Assembly: GCF_040412425.1 (NCBI RefSeq)
Contig: NC_089782.1
Span: 42,030,822-42,094,821 of the forward strand
Length of the DNA stretch: 64,000 nt
Direction: 5' to 3'
Origin: Macrobrachium rosenbergii
Lineage: Eukaryota > Arthropoda > Malacostraca > Decapoda > Palaemonidae
Shown: positions 1,436-63,265 of the stretch, piece by piece
How positions within the stretch are numbered: the stretch's first letter is position 1
Layout of the letters: the number at the start of each line of letters is the position of its first letter
Notes under the pieces: generated by a model
Told to the model about the DNA's origin: nothing
The model's input: only the letters and a program-made list of their open reading frames with translations
Database searches by the model: none
Program-made: the position numbers and the translations under genes

Positions 1436-15556
<14,121 letters not shown>

Positions 15557-28344: not shown

Positions 28345-30807
28345 AAGTCCACCTGCAACCTTAAATGGAAAAGCAGAATGCAGGTAAGCTGTGGGGTTGT
28401 CATAGAGAAAAGCAGGCCAGTATAGAAAAGAACAAAGAGGTAAAGAATTAACTCTAATAGAGAAATATAGGTAATAAAGAAAAATAGGATGAATAACACT
28501 AAATTAAAAAGAAAGATAAATAAATAATGAAATGAGACTTGTGTTAGTCTAATCAACAAAATAGCATTTACTCTGAGTTTAAACTTTGGATGGATTCAGC
28601 TACATAATTATGAGGATCATTACAGAATTTGGTCAAAGTTTTGTAATCTGTCTTCAAGTCATTTTATTTTCTCTTAACTGTGTGTGAATACTCAAGAATT
28701 TATGCATAAATTACAATGAATATAATTTTTTACTATACTTGCCCTCTACAGATTTCTACCAGTTTCTTCTGTAGATATTTAGGTAAAAAAAAAAAAAAAT
28801 AACTAGCAACACTTGTTTAACTAATCACACGGTTGGTTGTGTTACAACTATTAGGTATAATGTATGTGCTCTATATATGAAGATAGATGGTATGTATTTT
28901 ACTATAACAGATTAATATGTAAGGAACACATACCATTCTTAAAGTAAACTGTATACCTTTGTCCTGAATACAGTCAGTAGCTATTGGTCTTGCAATATTT
29001 GCTGGCCATGATTTCACTTGTCATACGTCCATAGGTTATGTAAGTTTCCTTAAAACGTTTCCTCTCTACTGAATAAGAGATATTCCTGCTTCAAGCACTC
29101 CCTTTTGATTAGCATTTTCCTGTAGCACAACAGTGAAATGCTGTCTCATATCACCCTTCAAAACTGAAAAATATTGCAAAAGGAAGGATGAGATGGGAAG
29201 TATCTGATTATTTGTTGCAAAAGGAAGGATAAGATTGGGAAGCATCTGATTATTTGGTATTCACCATCAAACTGTAGCCTACTTGATCATACAGAACACA
29301 AAACATCTTTTTTTGTGAAAGAGTATCCTTCAGCACAAGCTGGGCATCCAGTCTTAGAGCTTAAGCTTATTAAGAGGCAGCTCCCTACACTACCCCTTTT
29401 AATAATGGAGGGGGAACACTAGACCCGTAAGCTGAACCCATCAGTTTCAGTTGTCAAATTTTACCAGCCTTCTGGCTTGTCAACCCTTGTAGTGGTCACA
29501 CTTAACTCTCAGTATTTTCTTATACTAGCAACATTCCAGACACTTCTCACTCAGGTTTAGACCCCCATCAGTCTGGTGTCCCTGTGCCAGACTGAATAGG
29601 AGGTTAGAGTAGTCGACACTTCACTGCTCACTATCATGACTGGGAATGTAACAATTCTGGGTGGCAATTCAACTTGCCAGTCAGTTTAGCGATAAACTCC
29701 CACCGAAGGAATGAGTCTCGTACATAAAGGGCAATGGTTTTTATTCCCATAGGAACACATCCCAAATTTTTAATGTGATTAATATTGACATTGGGGGTGC
29801 TAGAGAGTTCTCACACCAATACTTCTTTTGTAACACTGGCATTGACAACTTCCTGATGTATTATGCTGCCCTGGTCTGATATTGCAACAATTTCAGCGAT
29901 GTTCCTCCCTCTTTTAAACTCATCTGGTTGGGAAATAGACATTTATTGAGCTGGAACACTTAAATTTTCTAGATGTTTGTACTCCCTTCATCAATGAAGG
30001 ACAATACCTGAAGTTTGTATATTGATGTATAATGTATCAGTGTCAAGTGACGTCTTTCACTTGTGTATGGTGCTTCTTGTTTTTGATAGTGTTGTAACTT
30101 CCATAGCAGTCATGAGTTTTGCTCACGCTTTAAAATTATGCTGGTACTGTACCTTGATGATAAGCAAGCAGCGAAACCTTGAGAAGTCTTTCTTTGAACC
30201 TTGAGAAGTCAACTCAAGAAAGAGCACTAAGTGAGTTTGCTACCAGAGGAAGTGCCTGAACACAACTGCAAACCATGTGTGCATTAACAAATGACATGGC
30301 AATTGATGTACAGTAACCCTCTGAGGGTGTCTTAGTCACTAATTAGCATCGGGTTATTATGAAATTCAATATTGGTTTTTAATTGCTTAGACCAGAGAAA
30401 GCATTTGTAAAGCAATGACTCAAAGTTGTCTAAGAACAGAATATTGGCTAGCTACATTTTAGCAAGTCACTGGTTCTCAGTAAACATATGGGAAGTGCAT
30501 ACTCTCACTTGAGGATCCTGCTTGCATCCTCATTTTCATCTAGTGACAGATAGAGCACATGCAATATATGGGCTTGTGTAGTTACAAAGCATTGAAATGG
30601 TGTTGAGAATTAAAACTTCAAATGATTTGTAAATTTTTAAATCTGTTAACTGCAAATTTTAATCTTGATGTAGTATTTACCATTTTTGAGTAATGTGTTG
30701 ATAATTCAGTAGTTTTCTGGGAGAATACATTCACTCTAGTGCTTCGTATTTGGAATAAACCTGATTTCAGTTATAAACCTTGTACTGAACATTTTTATCA
30801 TTTTACA
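28344..30807. other. DNA upstream of the small ORF/MKKS unit
   Basis: It holds a two-copy tandem duplication of a roughly 41-bp unit at 29175-29257 and otherwise unassigned sequence. The promoter and 5' UTR exon(s) of the downstream unit should lie in or upstream of this stretch, since the small ORF's first coding exon starts at an acceptor. I could not locate them. Confidence 0.4.
29175..29257. repeat. Tandem duplication, about 41-bp unit
   Basis: Two adjacent units beginning 'ttgcaaaaggaaggat' and ending 'atctgattatttg', with a few differences. Confidence 0.85.
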
Positions 30808-30809
30808 GA

Positions 30810-33800
30810 ATGGGCCCCAAGTTTGGACGCATTCAGGAATTTATGAAAAGAAACATGGTAATGTTGGTCATGGTTCCTATAATAATTGGATTTCACGTTG
30901 GATGGCAAAAACTACAAGATAATGAAATGTTTGTTCCCAAGAAACAGAAAAGAGATCTACCAGTGATTGAGGTAAGCTATTTATGCATGATAAAATTATG
31001 CAACTGCATGAAGATAAATGATGTGAGGTTCATAGATACCTAGACATACTTTTATCCACATGCTAAACCATGTTGGTTACAGCTAATGTTTTGATTGGAA
31101 GGTTAAATTACATCATGAATAAATTTTGTTTAGGTTTTCAAATGTTGACTGTCTGCTGTTGGTGGCTTTCCTTGTGCACTCTCAAGCGCTGATGTTTGCT
31201 TCTACTGTATTTGTATTCACTCTTATGAGATGCTATTAGCACAGACCAGGATAATACGGTATCTCATGTTATAATTTTTCTCATCATGATGGAGGAAAAT
31301 TATTCAAATTGTGGCTTCACATATACAACTGCAAACTACAGTTGACCCCCGCTTATTCGCAGATTTCGCTATGGAACATATAAACACATTATTTGCAGGA
31401 AAGTCACCTGTTCGTGGTATTTTTCTTAGAGAAATTTTAACAAATGACTTTATTTTCATATCATTTTCGTAACTAAATGCACTCTTTGTGATAAAAGTAT
31501 GAAAATATTCAGGTATAAGCATTTTTTGATGGTTTTTTGGTGTTTTGAACTATCAAAATAGGCTGTTATAAGTGTTTTTAGAGGGGTTTTAAGTAACAGT
31601 ATTTGAGGAATTTAGCTATTTGCAGGGGGTGGTGGTACGCATCCCCCACGAATACCAGGGGTCAACTGTAGTAGAAATAAAACAAAAATGCCCTTTCACT
31701 GCAGTCACATACCACCAACTACTTTATTTCGTTGTTTCAGACAACAGTAAAGTTGCTTGATATACAAAATGTTTTAGGTATCTCTCACCTTGAGACCCTC
31801 CTTGAATGTAAAATATTTATGAACTAGAATATCAGAATATGAAAGATTACAAATTACATATCTTATAATGGTACAACACAGTGTTAGTCACCCAATCTAT
31901 TAAATGCTGTATACAGTTTAGTCAGTGCTAGAATCTAAATAATTTACTCATAACTTTGCATTTTAGCCTTATTTTAGGCTTTTGTAAAACATCAGCAACA
32001 TTAAATTCTGTTGGAACATAAAGACAGCACCAGTTTACCACAGTTCACTTCTAACCTTATGAAGTGATATCCCACATCAGTGTGCATTGACCTTTGATGA
32101 CTAACAGGGTTATTGGATAAGGCTGTGGAACCCTGGTTATTGTGTCATAATGTAAACTTTTTTGAACTCAACACTTGCTACTAAATCATTCAACAACTGA
32201 AGAAAGAAAATCCCTTCCTGGGCAGCTGAAGCTAAGGCCATATACTCAGCTTTACATGATGACAATGCAACTGTTGGTTGCTTCTTACTGTTCCAAGAAA
32301 TTATTGCTGACCCTTCACCTAATCTGAAGCAATATCCTGTTATACTCTTACGATCATCTGATAAGACCCAATCTGCATCCATACAATCTAGCTATCTTCT
32401 CTGTAGCAAAAATATAATTCATGATCTAATGTCTCTTGATTACTCTCAAAACATGTTTAACAACTAGCACATGATGTTCAGCACTTGGTTTGTTTAAATA
32501 CTATGACAATTTAGTAACAATCCAGCTCAAATCAGGTAGTACAAGTCATTGCATAAACAAACTACCAATCATTTCTTTCTATTTTACAACATCAGGGACT
32601 TCAGAGTTAGTGGAAAAATTCAACCTAAGTTCACAAGTTGTAGCCTTTGACTTACAGTTTTCCATCTGTAATTACTGGAGACTCTTTTTGAGACAATGAC
32701 CTTGGCTCATTTTCAGAGTATTTTGAAATTTGAACTTGGTACCTAGAAAGTAAGATATTTTCCGCAAGTCTGGTATCAACAGAGACAAGGTAAAAATCAT
32801 AGAACATCTGTTTTTCTAGGATATACACAATATCCTGTACTCTGAACAAGACAAAATCCTAAATTGACCAAAGAATCATACTACACATTGTTCCAGTTAT
32901 GACCACTTTGTTTCAACCCATACAAGGATTCTTTTAATTTTCGCACAAAAGCTTTAATACCAACATTGATATCATCAGGCTATTCTACAAAAATTTCACA
33001 ATCCATGGGTGCATTGAGGTAAGTGGTTCTTATATCTAACTGAGAAACATTTGAACCAAACTGTGCCACCTGTTGTATTACTCTCAATGGGGTCATCCTG
33101 GCAGGAGGAGCAAATGTTTCCTGTTACTCATTTCCCTGTGTTGGACTACTGTATAACCATTTGCAAAACCCCTTTGAACACATACTGTACACCCAATGAC
33201 TCCTGACTATTCTCCTATTTTTTGGAGATGGAATAACTTCAAATGTGGCATAATACTTCAAAGAGGATACTTCTTCTTCCATTGCTTCATACAATTTTTG
33301 TGAATCTGGTGATGACACAGCCTCTTGATGTGTTATCAGAACATGTAAAATTATTTTATAGCAACAGTTAACATTATGGTGTATTTTGTCATCCATTACG
33401 TAATCATCAGAACATTTTGGCAACTTTGTTTCCTCTATGGATTCCTCCAAATTTTGGGTAACTGCTGAACTCTAAGCTCAAAGGACTCTACATTTTCATC
33501 ATACGTAATTATCACTCATTGGAGTGAAGCAAGTATGACTGTTTTGTATTTACTGAAGTCTGACTATAGCTAATGACTGGTGCATAGCAACTGTGGTTTA
33601 AAACTGTTGATGCTTGTTACTTATTGTGTAGGTAATGTAAAAAACCCCTTAGGCTTTAGAGTCAGAACCTATCTTATTATATTTTATCATATTTCATTTT
33701 TGTATATAATCTTTATATCTGTTTAATGGGAAATATAATGTTCTAATTTGCAAAATAATATATTTCATTGCATGGCTTCTGTGCCTGTTGAGTCTTATAC

Positions 33801-34412
33801 TGTATTATTATGAGAGACCACTTTAGTTTGTGTTTACACTTGAGGGTGGGATTTTGTTGTTTGCCCATAAAAATAGTTGTCCATAGGTTAAACTTTGACA
33901 ATTGACCTTCATCTTGCCCCCCCTTTTTTTTTATTAAGAAAAAGTGTGTTCTATACTGGCAAATATAGCATTCCAGTTGGAAATATCCTGTACACGCAAC
34001 CATTCTATTTCTTTCTGTGACTGTAGATTACAGTAGACTGAATTATGTGAAGTGTCCAAGAATGCTTTTGCCTTCCACTGGAGTGCATTGCTATTCGATA
34101 GGAGGAAGATTAATGTTAATCAGGGAAAAAATCAGTTGCGAGAAGATTCTGTCTCAGGAAAGAAACAGTTGTAATATTGACAAATCCAGGGATGTCTGAT
34201 TTGAAATTAAAAGTTTTCCTAGAGTTATGCTGCTTGAAATGTTTATCATCTTTACAAAACTGTGACCAAAGATTGTGGGGTAACTATAGAAAAGTTTTTC
34301 TTTTTTGCATAATTATCTTTTGTATCCTCTCCTTATTTTTTTACTTTTATTTCAGGGAGCAAGATACTTAGAAGAAGAATTGAAATCTTCTTTAGGCTTG
34401 AAGAAAGAGTAA
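30810..34412 (+). CDS. 72-residue single-pass membrane protein upstream of MKKS (uMKKS-like)
   Basis: Two exons join in phase 0: 30810-30971 (54 codons from ATG, preceded at 30806-30807 by an acceptor AG and followed by GTAAGC) and 34356-34412 (18 codons plus TAA, after ATTTCAG). The protein starts MGPKFGRIQEFMKRN, has one hydrophobic segment at about residues 16-31 (MVMLVMVPIIIGFHVG) and a lysine-rich middle (KKQKRDLPVIE), and ends YLEEELKSSLGLKKE. A short basic N-terminus before one membrane span suits a small mitochondrial membrane protein; that location is inferred. The exon continues past the stop to a donor at 34454 that fits splicing to the MKKS start exon. Human MKKS mRNA is reported to carry upstream ORFs for mitochondrial peptides (uMKKS), and this may be their counterpart. 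I could not align the sequences. Confidence 0.8.
31339..31668 (+). mobile_element. MITE family B, copy 2
   Basis: The termini are exact inverted repeats CAGTTGACCCC / GGGGTCAACTG, flanked on both sides by the dinucleotide TA (31337-31338 and 31669-31670). The 330-bp body has no coding capacity and matches copy 1 at 12137-12486 in reverse. TA duplication and CAGT ends fit a pogo/Tigger-like non-autonomous element. It lies in the intron of the small membrane-protein gene. Confidence 0.85.
32137..33480 (-). mobile_element. Ty1/copia-type retrotransposon remnant
   Basis: Minus-strand translation from high to low coordinates gives a copia RT N-terminus (33124-33450: AVSSPDSQKLYEAMEEEVSS and NRRIVRSHWVYS). 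Next come broken RT pieces near 32900-33060 (DIRTTYLNAPMD and KLKESLYGLKQSG-like residues). The copia RNase H follows (32137-32382: ADWVLSDDRKSITGYCFRLG and KKQPTVALSSCKAEYMALAS). Stops and frame changes make it non-functional. No LTRs were found. It sits antisense in the intron of the small membrane-protein gene. Confidence 0.82.
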
Positions 34413-34454
34413 CCAGGCAATTTTAACCATTTGTACATACAACTTAGTTTTCAG
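34413..34454 (+). promoter_or_regulatory. Intercistronic leader and CAG|GTAAGC donor
   Basis: Only 42 nt separate the small ORF's stop from a near-perfect 5' splice site (TTTTCAG then GTAAGC at 34455). The matching acceptor TTTTTCAG ends at 38458, and the MKKS ATG begins at 38460. Spliced, the small-ORF stop and the MKKS start would be 43 nt apart on one mRNA. Confidence 0.65.
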
Positions 34455-34528
34455 GTAAGCTTACCATAAGACTAGTTTGGCATTAATGTTATACTGCACG
34501 GGACTTCAAAATCACATTTGATAATTTA

Positions 34529-34534
34529 AATAAA
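34529..34534 (+). terminator. Candidate intronic polyadenylation signal AATAAA
   Basis: A canonical AATAAA lies 117 nt after the small ORF's stop and 75 nt into the proposed intron. Use of this site would give a short transcript carrying only the 72-residue protein. Context only; there is no RNA evidence. Confidence 0.45.
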
Positions 34535-37214
34535 CTTATGTGATCCATAGAAATAGATATAGTGCACATAAAAAAGCACTGATGATTGTTTCGCTGGTCT
34601 AAGCAGTTCAGACCAAATTTCATAAGGTATAGAAGATGTGATAGGGCTGTTAAAATAATGACTGAGCCAACCTCAATAAGTTCTGCTCCCTCTCATCTGT
34701 TATGCTCTTTTGGATATCAAACTCATTTACTTTTCATTTCAATAGTCATGAGACTTTATGATTTACCTGAATATCATGAGGTTGCTTTAGAATGCAGGGA
34801 AGTTATAATTTTTCATTGTGATAATCCTGATGACTTAAGATTCATATCTTGCAATTTTTTAGAAATGTTTAAAGGTATATACTCATTGTCAAGGCGCAAA
34901 CTAAGCGGTGGATAGTTTTATAATCTAGCAAAGTGATACTTCATGACAGTTGAGAAGGAACGTCAAACTTCACCTACCTGGTGTTTGTTCTCATTCTTAA
35001 ACTTTGTCTGACTATGAATGAACTAGAGGTAAAGAATGTTCCATTTTGAGTGCTTTTGCGAGGGGAAAAGCTGCTTCTTACCTGGTGCTCAGCTTGGCAC
35101 ACTGCAGATGGTACTGAAGGTTCTTTGCATAATCCTTACATTCCTTTCACCCTTTTAATTTTCATCTGATGACTTCTCGGCCAGAATCCAGGCCCCTTCT
35201 TGAAGTAACAGACAAGTGATTTTTTTTCCTTGGGTGGTGTCACAGTGAACTGAAAGTCTGAAGTTGAATTGTCTATTTGCAAAATGGTGCAGCCACAGCA
35301 TCTACTGAGTGGCTTTATTTGGTGAGTTTTGGAAGACAAAGATGGCAGATGTTTGGTGGCACCAACATTTTTCAAGCAGATTCCCCCATGTGGTACTGGT
35401 TGATAATATTCTTATTGAAATATAAACATTTGGTATCTCTTGGTGGGGTCACCATGCCAGTTGTTATAATGATTGATGTTTGTAGTCAACCTCACACTGC
35501 AATTCCATTTTGAATGAAAAAAAACTACAGCTATGCTTTGTGTGAGAGGGGGAATGGTTGCAGTTGCTGCTTTTGCTGTGGTCACTGTTAATGACAGCAG
35601 GAGAGATATTGACCATGGGAGCATTTACTTCATGATGAAGACTTTAAGTGCATCTAGCAGTGGAATCATGACAGTTACAGTTTCAGGGATGTTGGTATAT
35701 ATGCTGGTACTCTTTGCCTGAATGTATAACCTCCAGTGAAGAAGATGGAGAAGTGTTTACCCCATCAGGATCTCTCATAGTTGTGACTGTGATTTCTTTA
35801 CAGATGACAGGTTTTGAATCATCTTGAGCATACAAACAGGATAGCTGGTAGCAGGATAACTTTGAACTTTGTAGTGCTGGAGGACTAGTCTCTGTTGTAG
35901 TCATTGCTGGAGTAGGGGTCACAGCTGAAGGTGATATTACTTGAGGCAGTGACATGGCAGACACATCAATGTCAATTTTCTGCTGTAACTCTGGGTAAAA
36001 AAAAAACATTGAATAAAACAGTGTACTTCAGTCAGGATGGGTATTAGTCTTCCTTGGTCATGAGTACATCAGCTAGAGGTTTGGTGGGAAGAGTGGGAGT
36101 TGTGTGCAAGGCCATTCACTGGTAAAGGCATGTGTTGAGTTGTCAGGAGGAGAAGTGGGCAGAGTAAGAGTGGTGAGGAGTGCTCAGGGTGAACTGGAGG
36201 CAGGTAGGCTGTGTTGCACCCAAGCCAGGCTGCTGGAATATCACTGGAAGACTGGCTCCTCTTGACTGTGTACTGATATGAAAACTCTATTGCCTACCTG
36301 GAGACAGAGGGCTCCTAAGAAAATGAAGCACATATTTCCATGACATTACTCCTAGAAAGGCACAACTTGTATGTCCTCTTTTTGAAAATGTGCCCCTCTG
36401 GTTGCATGACCACAGGGTTGGGGGAAAGCACCTGTTTTCAGTAATTACTGTACTGCATAAAAGATGTGGGTTCTTTAGATAGTCAGGGTTACATATTAAA
36501 TTAAAGAATATATTTTTCTACTTAATTATTTATTCTCTGAAAATTTAAACCAAAGTTAACATTATTGCCTACATATTTGGTCATTCAAATACTAGTAACA
36601 GTTATTGCCTATGCATTTTGTATTATGCCCAAAATTGGTTGCACTCATGACCAGGAAGTTGCCAGGGTATGAAATGAAACCCTCAGGCTTATTGGAATTC
36701 ACTGTAGTACATAATCATTAAATGAGTTAATATTGCAATAATTGGGTAACAGTTATGTGCAGCTAACTGATATAATTGACACACTTACAAAAATAAAATT
36801 AGTGCATTAGTGGAACAGTTATTGCACCTACAGGACTGTAAAAGAAGTAGCCTACTTAATATTAGTGAAACAGATCATTAGTGCTAGGAAGATACTACCC
36901 AGAAAAATACAATAGCAAAAAAATACCTGAAATTGCCAAAATTATTTTAATACTATATACTAAAAATATAATTCCAAGAAGAGGGAAAATCAAATTAACC
37001 TTCTCAGTACAGTGAAGCTGGTTAGCGTGGATGCAAATCAACCTCTGAATCCTAACAAGTCAGCTGTTTGTTGGCAAGTTAGCATAAATTTGTAACACTG
37101 AAATTGGAGGGAATTTAGAATTGCACATGAAACATAGAAAAACAATGATAAAGCATTGAAATGTTGCTAACAACTGAAAATGAGCTTAATTTTCTAAGGG
37201 TAGTTAAACAAATA
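34535..37214. other. Leader intron of MKKS, left part
   Basis: It contains a short piece like the start of repeat family A on the minus strand (about 35112-35160, 'gaaggttctttgca'). A 108-codon Ser/Thr/Pro-rich minus-strand open frame (35683-36009) is not recognised and may be a decayed element. Otherwise nothing is assigned. Confidence 0.35.
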
Positions 37215-37717
37215 CAGATAATTCTTCATTTACACAGATGTTGTGTATATGGAAATCGTGTAAATAGATCATAATTTCCCTGTGAGAATCAAGGGTAATA
37301 AAGGGAGATGAGGTTCTGAGACGGTGGGAAGCTCAACTTATTTTTGGGCTCTGACAAAAAATATTGTTATTTGAGCATTATGAGTAATGCAGAACATTAA
37401 AACACAAGTTTTCACTGTCCATCATCATTGCCTTACCTTCACCCTCTTTGCTTTCCTTCCGAATTGCGCTATGGGCTCTGTTGATGACCAAATTTATTAC
37501 CAAATTTCCCCAAATATTCAGCTCAGAGGCAATGGAATCTACTTTTCATTTGATGCTGGTAAGTGGCAGTATGGGAAATTTTGTTCTTGCTTCTTGTTCT
37601 TTTTACCTCTGTTCATGTGAGGAATTTGTGTAAACAGATCATTATTTCCTCTAATCATAGCCTGTGTTAAAGTGACAACAAGTATTTAGAACCTGTGTAA
37701 ATGGAGAGTTATCCCTG
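37215..37717. mobile_element. TIR element of about 500 bp in the MKKS leader intron
   Basis: Left and right ends are imperfect inverted repeats: 'cttcatttacacag' (37224) against 'ctgtgtaaatggag' (37693), and 'gtgtaaatagatcataattt' (37258) against the complement of 'gtgtaaacagatcattattt' (37630). TA precedes the left CAG end; the right flank reads CA. The body has no recognisable protein. A pogo-like MITE is the best guess. Confidence 0.65.
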
Positions 37718-38143
37718 CAGCCACACCACAAAGCCAGCAATTGAGGAGTTATGAATTAGGTAATGAATAGTGAAAGTAGTGAGACTGGTCGAAGAACAAT
37801 AAATATGGCAATCCTGCCAAGATGCAGGGAAATTCTGAACAGAGGTGATATAGCTTTGCAAACTAAACATGAGAAAGGTGACTGATAGGTACCTGAGGGT
37901 GTAGAAATACCATTCTTCTTTTATCTGTTAGGCAAAAGACTGTTGAATCAGGGAACACTGAAGATTGCAAATGTTGGCAAATATGATGGATTTGTTTGGT
38001 TGAAAAAGTTATCTTTGCAGACACTGTTTTTATTCAAGTTGTCATAGCACATATTTTCTCTCTTTATTAAATATTACTCACATACAAGGGTTATTTTTTC
38101 TGAATGGGATCAGTTATTTATATTTCCTTGTAAAACATCTGCT

Positions 38144-38264
38144 CCCTTTTGTATACCAAGCCATCAAGGGCTTTGCTTACCTGCCCTTTTGTATACCAAG
38201 CCATCATTGGGCTTGGCTTACCTGCCCTTTTGTATACCAAGCCATCAAGGGCTTGGCTTACCTG
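38144..38264. repeat. Minisatellite, three copies of about 40 bp
   Basis: Three adjacent units starting 'cccttttgtataccaagcca' and ending 'gcttacctg' (38144-38183, 38184-38224, 38225-38264). It ends about 195 bp before the MKKS start codon, inside the proposed leader intron. Confidence 0.92.
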
Positions 38265-38459
38265 TTGACTCTGTGTTTTCATATGAAACTTTAGTCCTTG
38301 CAAAGATCTATTAACTCCTTTGTATTATTAAATATTATGAAAAACAATGTCTGCATGTCTTAGAAAATGTAAATTTAACAATTTGTGTAAACATTTTTTT
38401 ATTTTCTGATACAAGAAAAATTATAGGTTTTCAAGGAATTCATTGACTTGTTTTTCAGC

Positions 38460-41400
38460 ATGTCTGGTGGAATTCTTCAAGAGGAACGGGTGAATGGTGT
38501 GTATTGTCACAGCTTACTGAACTTGTCTTTTGCTTCTATGTTGGCGCAGTACAGAAAACTATTGTTTTCTGCCTATGGTCCAAAAGGAGGTACACTTTTA
38601 ATTACTAATTCTGTGGGAAGAAGTACTCTAGCATCATCTTCAGTTGATATTACAAAGCAGTTGTCATTTGGTCATCCTTGCGCAAAGTACATCAACGCAT
38701 TGATTTCTGCTCAAAATGCATCTTGTGGTCTAAGTGGACTATACACTGGGATCCTCTGTGTGCGACTTCTAGAAGAAGCTCTTTGTTGTGAAGGTAACAC
38801 ACCCCACTATGCAATTGCAGATGTTTGTGAATGGATAATAGACCAGCTTCTGACTCAGATGGCTCAGTTTCCTGACCAAGTAGTAATAGATATAGATATT
38901 GGAGACATTCAGCAGGTGTCATCCTTTGTCAAAACTATTTTGGGCTCAAAAACAAACTTAAATCTCACTAAAGCAGAAATGGACAACTTGAGCATTCAGA
39001 TTGTTAGAGCTTTTCTGAAGAGCATTCCGGATGAAGGTTTGACAACCAAATTTGGTCACGTGAATGTGTTGCAAGAGGGCCCTCCAGGATCAGATGCTAG
39101 AGTTTTTGAGGGATTACTCTATAGGGAACCTGAGTTTGATACAAATCTATCTAAAAAAATTGCTCAGCTGCCCAAAGTTATCAATGTTTTGTTGTTTGCA
39201 GTCCCATTGTCACCTGATGTGGAAAAAACATCTTTACTGTGGACAGGCACTTATTCAAAAGAGGAAAGTTTTATCAATAACCTGGTTGTTTGTCTTTTGT
39301 CCATTTTAAAGGACAAAAATGTTCATGTGCTTGCAAATCAGAAATACATCCATCCAGCTATCAAGTTTGAATTAGAGCGTAAAGGTTGCATAGTACTGGA
39401 AAGACTTGGAACAATAGCCACAGATTCTTTGATAAAACTCAGTGGTTGTCAAGCTGTTACAAGTGTGAGTAACTTAAAACAAGAGGCAGCTAACGCTGTC
39501 TTGGGAAAGTTATCGTCCATACAATATGTTAGACTGCGAGGGAAAAATTATTTACTCTTGAAACAGGATTCAAGTTGCCTCTCTACTCTCTTGCTCCCAG
39601 AAGTTAGTCCTACCACTGAAGGGACCCTGAAGGTAAGCTATACATCCTGAACAGTTTTAAAGCAAAGGAAAATATTTCATGATGCTTTAAGTAATATTTT
39701 TTTATTACCCTTACTCTATTATAGGCTAATGGATAAGAACTGAAAAATTAAAACAGGCAAATCATTTAATCTTTACCTACATAGGAAGAAATTTCATATT
39801 AATGAACTTTATAGTTTTAAGTTTTTCACATTATGCATGTACTAAAAACACTAAATGTCATGCAGTTTAATATTTAATTTCTCAGAGTACCTATGATAAA
39901 ACAACCTTAAAAATTTTTCCAAAGAGCCTTCGTTGTAGGCTGTTTTGTAATTTTAGTAGTAGGCATTTTTGTAACCGTTTAATGTAGTTAGTGTTTCCAG
40001 ACATTTGTAATTTGCTTATGTCCATTTTTCCATCTCGTGTTAACATTAATGTGGGAACAGTGGTGGTAAAAAGCAGGAAAGTGATGGAAATGCTAACAAG
40101 AAGAAACACGAAAATTATTGTGCTCTAGAGATAAGGTATAAAGGACTTGGCACAAAATCCATCGGAAGTGACTTGAAAAAATATAAATTCTGGTGGAATG
40201 GTGGTGACACAAGGCAAAATTGGGTGGGCATAAAGTTAGGTATGAAATGGCTGAAGATGTTATAGAAGGCAGGTGAATAAATGAAAGAATAATGAAGATA
40301 ATGATGACCTTTGGAAAGGCAGTACTGTAATGCATGTATTTTTAGTTTAATTTCTCAGGATTACAGAATATTCATAGAAGGGATTTGTGATTCCCAAAAT
40401 GCATTTGCAAGCATAAAGGGTTAAGTGAGTTGAGAACCTTGTAATAGATGGGCAGGTTGCAGTACAGGTAGGTTATACCTATTACCTTACTGGACATATG
40501 GGGCTGGGAAAGTGTTGAAAGAGCAATAAGAAAGACCAAATGCAGCACAGATGAATTAGTATAGAGATATAGTAGCTAGACTGCTGGTAAATGGAAATGC
40601 CTCATTAGTAGAGGGAGCAAATATTTATGATGTGTACATAAGACGTATTCTACTGTATGCAGCAGAAACATGGACTCTGACAGTTGACATGGAGGATATT
40701 TAGAAAAGATGTGACTTTAGAATTTTGATATTCAAGGCCAGAGCATGGTAGGAATTTTATACAGTATTGTAATTGAAGAATTGGTGGAGAGATGTGTCCA
40801 GAGGCTGGACAAAAGACTGGGATTCCAAAGATTGATATTATGGTTTGTGCATGTGCTGACAAATACTTTATCAGAAAAGCAGTAGATTTGGAAGTACTGT
40901 AACTGGACAAAGACCTGTAGGAGGGCCTAGGGAGTTATGGAAAAAAGGGATAGATGAAGAAATATAGTAGATTTGACAGGAGTTCTGGCTAGAAGAGCAC
41001 ATGACAAGTGGGAATGCATCTCATGCCTAAACCCATGAAGGCAAAAGTTGACAGAAAAATGTATATGATTATGATGATGATGTTGCTGATATTATGCATA
41101 AGCTAAAGCTATATCAAAATGCTTTTTAATCACCCCATATCCTATCAGAAATTGCTCATGCTTTTGATATTTCCACAACTTCACTTACATCTTTGTACAT
41201 GCAAATGTTGGACAGCCACAAACAGTGGGCCTTCGAACTTGCTCTTTATCTTGCTGCACATCTATATTTGAGTTCTATTTATGTTTAAAAAATCCAAACT
41301 CTTTCACTGTTGATATCTTAATGAACTGGAGTATCTAGGTCATTATTGATGGTTGCTGGATTATATCATATCACATTTATTCCTATCTACATGATGGTGA

Positions 41401-44191
41401 ATGTATATAGCCTGTATTGTCAGTGTTTACTTGAGGTTATAGTCAGCCACAGTTTCTTTTTCTTATTCAGATTTTTTTTTTTATCAGAATATAGATGGTA
41501 GTATTAAAGGTTCTTTGCAGTGTCCCTTCAGCCCCAGCTGCATTTCTTTCTGCCTTGGATTGTTAATTTTTATTAATTATATACAGCACATGTATATTCC
41601 AATATTACTTTCATGTTTTCTTGTTGTCCTTTTTATCATGCAGGGATATTTTATAAGGAAGCTTGATGGGCAAGTTCATGATGTTTTGATTTATGCTTTA
41701 GAAATATATGATCATTTTAAATAAGTGGTGCATTGCATCTGTTTTTCTCATAAACATTACACAGGTTTATTCTTTCTGACTTCTTGGAAATGTGTTTTAT
41801 AATGAAGACTTATAATCTGTACATAAATAGTACATTTTCTCTAAATACACATGGATTTTTACTTATTATTTTCTTTTCAGTTTTCTCAGTGGGTATAATC
41901 ATTACTGTATCACATGCTCTTCCAAGGCTAACTAAGTTTTATGTCACTATTTATTACACTCATGTTTCATACCCCTGGATTTTGATTTGTTTACTGTACC
42001 TGCATACATACTGCTTACACCTTTAGCTCTCTTTAAACTACCTAATACCTGTAATGGTAATAATACTGTTTAAAAGGTAGACATATTTTTCCTCTTTGCT
42101 TCTTAAGAAATTTTGCAATCAGTGAAACATAACTTTTAATAAGGTACTTTGTTACACTTGGCCTGACTGACGTAAAACAGGTCATTATGTTAATGAGATT
42201 GTATTGCCTTTTCATTGATGCAGCTTTCTTTATTGTATTGAAGGTTTACAAACTACTTGTGTTCATAATGAAAGAGATATTAAAATGTCATATGCTTCTT
42301 ATTAGGAGGTTACAGAAAGCTGCCTTGCTGCTCTGAAGATGGCTGTTGTGGATGGGAAGGTTGTTGCTGGAGGTGGATGTTTAGAGACCTGGCTAGCAAC
42401 TCAAGTGATCCATATGGTGAAAGTGAACATGGATTGCCTTGCATCCATGACAGAGGTCCCAAGTCATCACATTGTCAGAGTAGGTTCTTTCTGAAAATAT
42501 TTCTTTACTGAAATAAGTATAGAAATAGGTTATTTACCAGATTACATAATCCAGTGACCTGGGTTTTGAATATGGTCACTATCATTGTTTGTCGGCACTA
42601 TAGTACTGTATACCTAAGCCACCATGAAATTATCTTACCTTTATTTAGTTGCTGTGAGAATTGCCAAGGGTAATGTTGAAGGTATTTAAGGGACCTTTTG
42701 GTGCCAGAATTATGATGTAATGGATGAAGGAACTTCCGAAATAATGTTTCATTTGTCATATCCTTCTTAGAATGTTGATCATGTGTTAGCAGCGTAAGTA
42801 GTTTCTTCTCTGTATTTAACAGACATTTTTATGAATATTGATTCCCTGTTAAAAACTTTTTTTTTTTTAGAACAAATTCAGTCATCTTGAAAAAGCAGTG
42901 TTGATCACATTCATTTTCCGAAGACAATTTCCTAGACAGATTCATCATTGAATGAATTTTTAATTGTTCCTGAAAATTTTAGTAGATTCCGAGGTAGTAT
43001 CAATAAATGCCTAACATCTCAAAATGGTAGTTGGCTTCCTGTTCTACTAACCCACCATGACTTTCCTTGAAGTAGGGATTAAGGTAATAGAGAATGAGGC
43101 AAGGAAGTAGGTATTAAGGTAATAGAGAATGAGGCTAGGAGATGCCTCAGCCATTCTCTAGAAAAGTTTTCTTCCCCTTAACAGTTCTCTTGGCAGTGTT
43201 AAGGCTATCAGTAATCATAAGATTGAGAAATTTCACTTATACTTGAAAGTGCCTTGCTGTGCTGCCATAAAATATATCATTATTTATAGCTGTTTGTTTA
43301 TTTATGTATGTGAAGAACGAGGGTTTGTATGTTAGGAAATAAATACAAATTACCTGTACTTAAAAAATTTTCATGTTATTTGTAATTGATATTACTTCAA
43401 TCTCCATTTTGAAATTTTTTCACAAAGGCCATTTTGTTAGCTGTACATTTTTTCTAGGAGTAATAACTCATACTTTATTACAGGTTGGCAATGCCTTTGT
43501 TCGAGTGTTCATGGAACTCGCCATCCAGGTAGCAGGTGGCTCATCAACAACAAAATTTGACTGGTGCGTCGATTCTGTCTTTCATCACCTCTGGTATTCT
43601 CAGGACTGTCTGGCAAATGGAGAATCTCCTCAAGAGAACTTTTCTCAGCAGAAACTGTGTAAATGTGTTTGTGGCTTGTTGACAGATGAAACCATCAAAA
43701 GTAAATATGGTGGTTTTTGGTATGACTTGGATTTCCAGATGAATCAGAATGTTGTTCAGGGGTCACCAGAGTCCACTTGTTTTTGTGAATCATTGATGCG
43801 TTTGGATAGTACTGAGTTAGAGACATTTCACCATGACTCAAAATTACAAACAGAAGATCCTGATTTTGGTATTGATAATGACAGCCTAGAAGAGAAAGTT
43901 GCCATTGAAGATGATGTTGATAGTTTGGAGAAGACTTTAAATAGTTTGGAAGAAGAAGGTGATAGCTTAGAGGGAAGACTGGAAAGTTTAGATGATGATG
44001 TGGATAGTCTAGAAGATGTATTAGATAAAATGGTGGATCAAGTAAACACAAAACATAATCCAAAAATTATATTTAATTCTCAAATCCCAGACGTCTTATA
44101 CGACAGTTACCTTGCAAAGTATAATGCTATGCGTCTTGCCCTGGAAGGTTTCACCCAGTTGTTTCAAGTAGGTTACTGTGTGTATGACTAG
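38460..44191 (+). CDS. MKKS: MKKS/BBS6 chaperonin-like protein (684 residues)
   Basis: Three exons join in phase 0: 38460-39632 (391 codons), 42306-42479 (58) and 43484-44191 (235 plus TAG). The fold is that of the group II (CCT-type) chaperonins. Visible landmarks are YGPKGGTLLI (about 39-48), a region equivalent to the chaperonin ATP-binding GDGTT motif but reading SCGLSGLYTG, an apical-domain middle, and the second equatorial block VVDGKVVAGGGCLETWLATQ (about 405-424) with ALEGFTQLF near the end. Loss of the GDGTT motif is characteristic of MKKS. The family member acts with BBS10, BBS12 and CCT in assembling the BBSome at the ciliary base. At 684 residues it exceeds the roughly 570 of vertebrate MKKS, mainly through an acidic heptad-repeat insert at about 582-632. 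The start follows an acceptor by one base, so the 5' UTR is in upstream exons. Confidence 0.9.
40440..41082 (+). mobile_element. LINE reverse transcriptase 3' remnant in MKKS intron
   Basis: Translation near 40630 gives VYIRRILLYAAETWTLTVDM. Downstream, in changing frames, come GQRPVGGPRELWKKGIDEE and a WFxHV-like stretch, the usual end of a RTE/CR1-type ORF2. The copy ends in a short ATG-rich simple tail (about 41062-41080). It has several stops and is non-functional. Confidence 0.7.
41505..41560 (-). repeat. Dispersed repeat family A, short copy
   Basis: It has 'ttaaaggttctttgcagtgt' then 'cccttcagcccc-agctgca', matching the start of the copies at 25131 and 52649. The remainder is lost. 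Confidence 0.6.
43069..43138. repeat. Tandem duplication, 35-bp unit
   Basis: Two adjacent units of the form 'gaagtagg-attaaggtaata' plus 'gagaatgaggc' in MKKS intron 2. Confidence 0.85.
43880..44032 (+). other. Acidic heptad repeat (DSLE) insert in MKKS
   Basis: Residues about 582-632 contain a tandem of seven-residue units on the pattern D/N/E-S-L-E/D-x-x-x: DSLEKTL, NSLEEEG, DSLEGRL, ESLDDDV, DSLEDVL, with a looser DSLEEKV unit before them. Leu and the residue at the seventh position recur every seven positions, as in a coiled coil. The units differ at DNA level, so this is not a recent replication slip. Confidence 0.85.
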
Positions 44192-44302
44192 CAATTTTAG
44201 TGTGTGAACTGTAGACAGTTCTCTAACTGTGTTAGGGATTTTTATAAGTATTTCACTGAATATTATGTGAATGGCCATGCATGTCACCAAGAGATGTACA
44301 GT

Positions 44303-44308
44303 AATAAA
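44303..44308 (+). terminator. MKKS polyadenylation signal AATAAA
   Basis: First canonical signal after the MKKS stop, 112 nt downstream. Confidence 0.6.
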
Positions 44309-54112: not shown

Positions 54113-62820
<8,708 letters not shown>

Positions 62821-63265
62821 CTGACGGAGGGAAAAAATTGATTGAGTGATGTTGCAGTTTAAAGTCTTCTCAGTTCGAATGGGTGCGTTTGATTTGTTCT
62901 TTTTAATCACGTTCATTCAGATGTATGCGCTCAAAGATAGAGGGTTGACAGAGCTGTCAGGAATAAAGTGAGAGAGGAAAAGAAGGCAAATGGTTAAAGA
63001 TAGAGGGGAGAGATGAACAATAAACTTTAAGAATAAAAAGTTTCTCGAAGTGAAAATGCAAAGGTGAATGGGCATACGGATCTGAGGATAAAAGATGAAA
63101 GCGGAGGTTATTGTTTGAGGTGGATGCTGCCTTGGGTTGATAGTGTGAATATGTTGAAGGTTTATTGAAAATGGAAAGAAGAGAGGCAAAGCTGAATGAT
63201 GCAAGAGCTGAAGGAAAAGGTTAGTGCGATGTTAGATTGCTTTTGGAAAAAAGTTTAAGTATATC

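What the first reader, a model, noticed from the sequence alone, without database searches (positions are those of the whole stretch)
30808..44308. A small membrane protein and MKKS appear to be encoded on one spliced two-cistron mRNA
Seen: the 72-residue ORF ends at 34412, its exon runs 42 nt further to a textbook donor (CAG|GTAAGC at 34454/34455), and the next same-strand gene, MKKS, begins one base after a strong acceptor (TTTTTCAG at 38458). MKKS has no room for its own 5' UTR in that exon, so its leader must come from upstream, and the small-ORF exon is the natural donor. Known: human MKKS mRNA is reported to contain upstream ORFs encoding mitochondrial peptides (uMKKS) that repress MKKS translation. 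Inference: the arrangement is ancient and present in a crustacean, here with the upstream ORF itself split by an intron, so the peptide has its own exon structure and selective history.
Basis: partly seen in the sequence, partly recalled or inferred. Interest (0 to 1): 0.88.

Follow-up and report, generated by a model that had tools for sequence, protein, structure and literature searches.

The report
Conserved microprotein shares chaperonin-like gene's mRNA
In shrimps, lobsters and crabs a conserved membrane microprotein of about 70 residues sits just upstream of the chaperonin-like gene MKKS and is probably made from the same messenger RNA, an arrangement reported for human MKKS.

Summary
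The anatomy is confirmed. A 72-residue ORF is split by one intron (exons 30809-30971 and 34356-34454). It ends 42 nt before a CAG|GTAAGC donor, and MKKS (684 aa, three coding exons, 38459-44191) starts one base after an acceptor. The identical 72-aa protein exists on public contigs of at most 2578 nt, shorter than the 3384-nt intron it spans, so the splice is real. The peptide occurs in four decapod infraorders. It lies directly upstream of MKKS in Homarus, Petrolisthes and Chionoecetes, whose gene models, probably wrongly, fuse the two. One shared mRNA is supported only indirectly: 8 of 10 spliced peptide hits have longest contigs over 2300 nt, and one crab peptide and one crab MKKS share the exact length 2769 nt. 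Some such match arises by chance in about 6% of simulated draws. No molecule joining 34454 to 38459 was seen. Homology to human uMKKS1 was not shown: only 17 human residues were available and they gave no signal. Best reading: a two-cistron mRNA for a one-pass, probably mitochondrial, microprotein, with MKKS translated inefficiently downstream. A new variant of the known MKKS/uMKKS arrangement.

The parts
30809..30971 (+). Exon A: start codon (30810) and first 54 codons of the 72-aa peptide; N-terminal basic segment and the predicted membrane helix
   Evidence: Splice signals ttttacag|a and GAG|GTAAGC; exact spliced protein P0001 on public contigs; conserved in a 19-row alignment
34356..34412 (+). 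Exon B, coding part: last 18 codons and stop (ends ...SSLGLKKE*)
   Evidence: C-terminal LGLK or similar in the relatives that run through the junction
34413..34454 (+). 42-nt stretch between the peptide stop and donor CAG|GTAAGC; no ATG; its last two bases would supply the -3 A and -2 G of the MKKS start context in the proposed mRNA
30972..34355 (+). Intron inside the peptide ORF (phase 0, 3384 nt)
   Evidence: same position suggested by P0038-P0041, which read into an intron there
34455..38458 (+). Proposed intron between the two cistrons (4004 nt); holds an AATAAA at 34529, a candidate early polyadenylation signal
   Evidence: splice between 34454 and 38459 inferred, not seen
38459..39632 (+). 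MKKS exon 1 (one untranslated base, ATG 38460, 391 codons)
   Evidence: Cpn60_TCP1 PF00118 E 8.4e-28
42306..42479 (+). MKKS exon 2
   Evidence: spliced protein identical to P0002
43484..44191 (+). MKKS exon 3, coding part and stop
   Evidence: identical to P0002
44303..44308 (+). AATAAA, likely polyadenylation signal of the MKKS mRNA; from the start of exon A to 44325 the spliced length is 2452 nt

Best explanation
One transcription unit makes a spliced two-cistron mRNA: an unidentified 5' UTR exon, exons A and B (72-aa peptide), then the three MKKS exons. The first cistron is a genuine microprotein: a short basic N-terminus, one membrane helix, a conserved FVPKQQRRDLP linker and a C-terminal helix ending in LGLK. 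It is most likely inserted in a mitochondrial membrane, as reported for human uMKKS. Because eight AUGs in exons A and B, including the peptide's own start, precede the MKKS AUG and the gap after the peptide stop is only 43 nt, MKKS is probably translated by inefficient reinitiation, so the first cistron keeps MKKS low. An early polyadenylation site in the second intron could release peptide-only mRNA. Shown: exon structure, splicing within each cistron, conservation, adjacency in decapods. Supported indirectly: one mRNA. Inferred: location, reinitiation, repression, early polyadenylation.
For: Exact spliced 72-aa protein on 28 contigs, longest 2578 nt; exact MKKS on 2 contigs, longest 2453 nt. 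Predicted spliced length from exon A to about 20 nt past the AATAAA is 2452 nt. Eight of ten spliced peptide hits from source 'lgn' have a longest contig over 2300 nt although the ORF needs about 220 nt. P0036 (peptide) and P0014 (MKKS) share longest contig 2769 nt. P0014 is 92.3% identical to Scylla olivacea P0011. P0036 is 94.5% identical to unnamed P0033 and 88.1% to S. paramamosain P0035, and P0033 equals P0035 over their first 55 residues. Three of 28 MKKS hits are gene models with the peptide in front. MKKS ATG sits one base after an acceptor here, and P0023 and P0024 read ...FQ directly before MSG. AlphaFold model: helices 4-14, 16-39 and 51-66, mean pLDDT 68.8; hydropathy maximum 2.12 over residues 16-32.
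Against: No contig or read was seen that contains both ORFs; contig sequences could not be fetched, and whether 'longest contig' refers to the whole cluster or its representative is not stated. At least one exact length match arises in about 6% of simulated draws before the taxonomic agreement is counted. P0002 and P0001, the window's own pair, do not share a longest contig (2453 and 2578 nt), though variants could explain this. Two of ten spliced peptide hits are on contigs of 1163 and 1388 nt, and one hit that reads into the intron, P0038, is also on a long contig (2876 nt), so length alone does not prove MKKS is attached. The human 17-mer gives no similarity.
Confidence: 0.7

Rival explanations
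1. Two neighbouring genes: the peptide gene ends at a polyadenylation site in 34455-38458 (an AATAAA lies at 34529), and MKKS has its own promoter and a non-coding first exon inside that stretch, spliced to 38459.
For: AATAAA 75 nt past the donor; peptide-bearing contigs are more numerous than full MKKS contigs (28 and 2), though short ORFs are easier to recover whole; two of ten spliced peptide hits are on contigs of 1163 and 1388 nt.
Against: AATAAA occurs about once per kb on this strand, so one near the donor is weak evidence. Most spliced peptide contigs have the size of a peptide plus MKKS mRNA (8 of 10), and one shares its length with an MKKS contig. Both transcript types may coexist, as reported for human MKKS (PMC12573267, passage).
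Confidence: 0.19
2. Operon-like unit resolved by spliced-leader trans-splicing at 38458 (and perhaps at 30808), which would also give start codons directly after acceptors.
For: Both cistrons start one base after an acceptor.
Against: Contigs of 2.4-3.3 kb carrying the spliced peptide argue for continuous molecules; 4 kb between cistrons would be long for an operon (general knowledge). Trans-splicing in decapods was not checked here.
Confidence: 0.04
3. The two parts make one fused protein, a membrane-anchored MKKS, as three database models state.
For: P0013, P0016 and P0019 are annotated that way.
Against: In the window the stop at 34410 separates them, and joining exon A directly to the MKKS exon is out of frame and ends after 103 codons. 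The three models treat exon B differently: omitted in P0013, cut at KNK in P0016, continued past KEE in P0019, while P0030 of Petrolisthes manimaculis stops at KEE, as expected of gene-prediction artefacts. An unfused Homarus model, P0007, has a longest contig of the same length and is 100% identical over 638 aa.
Confidence: 0.03

Closest known systems
Human MKKS mRNA with upstream ORFs uMKKS1 (63 aa) and uMKKS2 (Akimoto et al. 2013, not read; known here through passages of PMC8448870, PMC12573267, PMC5896265, PMC7530721; also listed as a predicted polycistronic transcript in PMC3951408)
   Same: A small ORF on the 5' side of MKKS on the same strand; small membrane protein; probable two-cistron mRNA, possible peptide-only mRNA
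   Different: 72 aa here against 63; here the ORF is split by a 3384-nt intron, whereas the human 63-aa ORF spans 193 nt of genome by the coordinates in a table of PMC9776223 (the table prints chr10), leaving no room for an intron; no ATG and so no second small ORF in the 43-nt gap here; sequence homology not shown
Other mitochondrial small proteins encoded in 5' leaders (MIEF1, SLC35A4 uORFs; table in PMC7066179)
   Same: Small, with a membrane or targeting segment, first cistron of a longer mRNA
   Different: No sequence comparison was made; different downstream genes
MKKS/BBS6 chaperonin-like proteins
   Same: Cpn60_TCP1 domain; NCBI names the 86%-identical Palaemon carinicauda protein 'molecular chaperone MKKS-like'
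   Different: Long acidic insertion with repeated DSLE before the C-terminus; not compared with vertebrate MKKS

Membership tests
MKKS upstream-ORF peptide (uMKKS) family | Encoded directly upstream of MKKS on the same strand | tested here: met
   window; gene models joining the two in three further decapods
MKKS upstream-ORF peptide (uMKKS) family | On the same mRNA as MKKS | tested here: inconclusive
   Indirect support: contig sizes and the shared length 2769; no joining read or contig seen
MKKS upstream-ORF peptide (uMKKS) family | Amino-acid homology to vertebrate uMKKS1 | tested here: inconclusive
   Only 17 human residues available (PMC8448870); 341 of 1000 shuffles score as well; no hit named as vertebrate among 15
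MKKS upstream-ORF peptide (uMKKS) family | Mitochondrial membrane localisation | not testable with these tools
   Only a predicted single membrane helix
MKKS upstream-ORF peptide (uMKKS) family | Represses translation of MKKS | not testable with these tools
   Leader anatomy only
MKKS (chaperonin-like, BBS6) | Group II chaperonin (Cpn60_TCP1) domain | tested here: met
   PF00118 E 8.4e-28; 25 solved chaperonin sequences match, best E 5.7e-18
MKKS (chaperonin-like, BBS6) | Closer to MKKS than to a CCT subunit | tested here: met
   Named hits (28 hits shown; only the 7990 candidates sharing most words were scored) are MKKS-like or uncharacterised; CCT and thermosome models score far below their cut-offs. 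No vertebrate MKKS was compared directly

The most novel reading that the evidence does not exclude
The decapod peptide and vertebrate uMKKS1 are the same gene: a two-cistron unit of a mitochondrial microprotein and MKKS that has stayed together since the common ancestor of arthropods and vertebrates, with the peptide, not MKKS, as the more constrained product in decapods.
Probability: 0.45. Interest if true: 0.82.

Novelty: new variant of a known kind. Interest (0 to 1): 0.62.

Why it matters
Eukaryotic polycistronic units are described as rare (PMC3951408, abstract start). Finding the MKKS unit across decapods, with the small protein split by its own intron and more conserved than MKKS in three of three same-species comparisons, argues that the peptide is a gene in its own right and not only a regulatory upstream ORF. 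It would explain fused MKKS annotations in lobster and crab genomes, and it gives a family alignment that can be used to look for the same peptide in other animals and to test why it travels with a ciliary chaperonin-like protein.

Tried and rejected
Pfam for the peptide: no family for the 72-aa protein. For 19 alignment members only chance-level matches: Ycf9 in 2 members, best E 0.015, and EB1 in 1 member, E 0.051. PDB profile search: four weak matches, best E 0.34. NCBIfam for three peptides: only weak unrelated names. Human 17-mer against the decapod profile: no signal.

A resemblance to the C-terminus of the complex III factor BRAWNIN came to mind from recall; no sequence of it was compared, Pfam listed no such family, and I drop it.

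Fused membrane-anchored MKKS: rejected for this species. The 5' UTR exon of the peptide was not found; a CAGGTAAG at 28381 is only a candidate. The structure model is of modest confidence, so no fold search was run. Whether the peptide has other copies in this genome was not tested, because the genome search did not complete.

Literature: searches with MKKS plus uORF and invertebrate (1 paper), bicistronic, crustacean (of which 5 listed; none opened), McKusick-Kaufman plus uORF, and MKKS, arthropod, small open reading frame (110 papers, 15 listed). I saw no title or passage describing an invertebrate MKKS upstream ORF, but many of these papers were not opened. The taxonomic range of the MKKS ORF in PMC7530721 is in a figure and supplements that are not held, so that paper may already list invertebrates.

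Changed on checking: confidence in the best explanation from 0.72 to 0.70 and in the two-gene rival from 0.17 to 0.19, because a hit that reads into the intron (P0038) is also on a long contig.

Full report
What is in the sequence. The MKKS of this window is 86% identical to that of the shrimp Palaemon carinicauda, so I take the source to be a caridean, probably palaemonid, shrimp (inference; lineage). Exon A (30809-30971) and exon B (34356-34454) give a 72-aa ORF with a phase-0 intron. The stop is at 34410-34412, and a CAG|GTAAGC donor follows 42 nt later. MKKS starts at 38460, one base after TTTTTCAG, and has three coding exons (38459-39632, 42306-42479, 43484-44191), 684 codons in all. The finding's coordinates are right. 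The pattern [CAG]AGGTAAGC occurs six times on this strand in 64 kb, three of them at donors of this unit.

Both ORFs are real. The first protein search found one relative of the peptide, P0001, identical over 72 aa, on 28 contigs of at most 2578 nt. The genomic intron is 3384 nt, so these contigs must come from spliced RNA (or, less likely, a processed copy). The exact 684-aa MKKS was found on two contigs of at most 2453 nt, again shorter than its genomic locus. Both have the source label 'lgn', which I recall as the Logan assemblies of public read sets; the tool does not say so.

Conservation and adjacency. Of the 28 MKKS relatives shown (only the 7990 candidates sharing most words were scored), three gene models begin with the peptide: Chionoecetes opilio P0013 (52 residues), Homarus americanus P0016 (66) and Petrolisthes cinctipes P0019 (72). 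An alignment of those three pieces plus a 17-residue human fragment then found 15 peptide proteins with E up to 10 among 20 candidates; all 15 align as one family, and those with a named organism are Petrolisthes manimaculis and Scylla paramamosain. With the window, this covers Caridea, Astacidea, Anomura and Brachyura (lineages). Eleven columns are invariant in the 19-row alignment: M21, P23, H29, W32, Q36, E39, V42, K44, D49, L50 and P51. In the three species where both parts come from one gene model, the peptide is closer to the shrimp than MKKS is: Chionoecetes 61.5 against 50.7%, Homarus 59.1 against 53.2%, Petrolisthes 58.6 against 47.4%.

Conserved intron and start. P0038, P0039, P0040 and P0041 follow the family up to the last codon of exon A and then continue with V (VSQS, VSS, VWV, VSR), which is what translation into a GT intron gives. 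P0039 also has an upstream extension ending LSLFSD before MG, consistent with an intron end close to the ATG. P0023 and P0024 read ...FQ directly before MSG, so an acceptor at the MKKS start codon looks conserved in the crabs they resemble.

One mRNA? Fourteen peptide hits carry the label 'lgn' (P0001 and 13). I set aside the four that read into the intron (P0038-P0041, longest contigs 2876, 1506, 1013 and 1169 nt). The other ten run through the A|B junction; their longest contigs are 2578, 2447, 2985, 1163, 3296, 2769, 2496, 3315, 2450 and 1388 nt, so 8 of 10 exceed 2300 nt. A 72-aa ORF alone does not need this; a peptide plus MKKS mRNA does. The 2876 nt of P0038 shows, however, that a long contig can also be unspliced or genomic. 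The window predicts 2318 nt from the start of exon A to the MKKS stop and 2452 nt to about 20 nt past the AATAAA at 44303. P0036 (peptide) and P0014 (MKKS) have the same longest contig, 2769 nt. P0014 is nearest to Scylla olivacea MKKS (92.3%). P0036 is nearest to P0033 (94.5%, unnamed), which equals Scylla paramamosain P0035 over 55 residues. In a smoothed simulation over nine peptide contigs above 2200 nt (P0038 included) and the seven full-length 'lgn' MKKS contigs, at least one exact match arises in about 6% of draws; shorter MKKS hits and those from other sources were left out of it. The taxonomic agreement lowers the chance by an amount I did not compute. P0001 and P0002 do not match in length. 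I saw no contig sequence, so the support is indirect.

How it would work. In exons A and B eight AUGs precede the MKKS AUG: six in the peptide frame, including its own start, and two in other frames opening ORFs of 6 and 14 codons. The gap between peptide stop and MKKS AUG is 43 nt without an AUG. The MKKS start context would read TTCAGC ATG T, with A at -3 supplied by exon B. Leaky scanning past all these AUGs is unlikely, and reinitiation after a 72-codon ORF is usually inefficient (general knowledge), so MKKS should be weakly translated from this mRNA. For human MKKS, repression by the upstream ORF is reported to depend at least partly on the encoded sequence (PMC7530721, passages). A review passage says the peptides were found in mitochondrial membrane fractions and that there are a long mRNA with both and a short one with the upstream ORFs only (PMC12573267). 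The shrimp second intron has an AATAAA 75 nt past the donor, but this motif occurs about once per kb here (65 in 64 kb).

The peptide itself. Hydropathy peaks over residues 16-32. The model has helices 4-14, 16-39 and 51-66 with a loose linker, mean pLDDT 68.8, pTM 0.32. No convincing Pfam, NCBIfam or solved-structure relative was found. A mitochondrial location is inference by analogy.

Relation to human uMKKS1. The only human residues I obtained are NDDIPEQDSLGLSNLQK (PMC8448870, passages). By eye DIP and SLGL recall the shrimp DLP and SLGL, but 341 of 1000 shuffles of the 17-mer score as well against the decapod profile. Homology is open. The human ORF spans 193 nt for 63 aa (PMC9776223 table), so the intron inside the ORF is a difference.

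Papers. Passages only were seen of PMC8448870, PMC7066179, PMC6886504, PMC10908861, PMC4568590, PMC7530721, PMC3951408, PMC9776223, PMC5896265, PMC4705651, PMC12573267 and PMC10032668. Akimoto et al. 2013 was not read. Searches for an invertebrate counterpart showed no title or passage describing one; many listed papers were not opened, and the taxonomic figure of PMC7530721 could not be seen.

Verdict. Observation confirmed; interpretation partly supported; a decapod variant of the MKKS upstream-ORF arrangement, with common descent from the vertebrate one likely enough to test but not shown.

Noticed in passing
window 1439-3729 (-): Frames of an elongation factor 2-like gene (EFG_IV, EFG_C, EF-Tu domain 2 in Pfam) lie upstream on the opposite strand.
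   Followed up: partly
window 6582-7073 (-): Reverse transcriptase fragment (RVT_1, E 7.5e-09).
   Followed up: no
window 59046-60479 (-): 478-residue open frame with a hAT transposase dimerisation domain (E 1.6e-4).
   Followed up: no
window 62535-62858 (-): C2-domain frame (E 6.7e-06).
   Followed up: no
window 32137-32391 (-), inside the intron of the peptide ORF: Open frame that looks by eye like a Ty1/copia RNase H fragment; Pfam gave no match up to E 1.
   Followed up: partly
window 38144-38264: Three copies of a 40-nt tandem repeat about 200 nt upstream of the MKKS acceptor.
   Followed up: no
MKKS exon 3, about 43890-44030: Acidic stretch with repeated DSLE motifs (4 in the window's MKKS; 2-4 in each of P0003-P0019; none in P0028, P0029 or the truncated P0020-P0027).
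   Followed up: partly
P0013, P0016, P0019: Public MKKS gene models of Chionoecetes, Homarus and Petrolisthes carry the upstream peptide as a fused N-terminus, probably annotation errors.
   Followed up: partly
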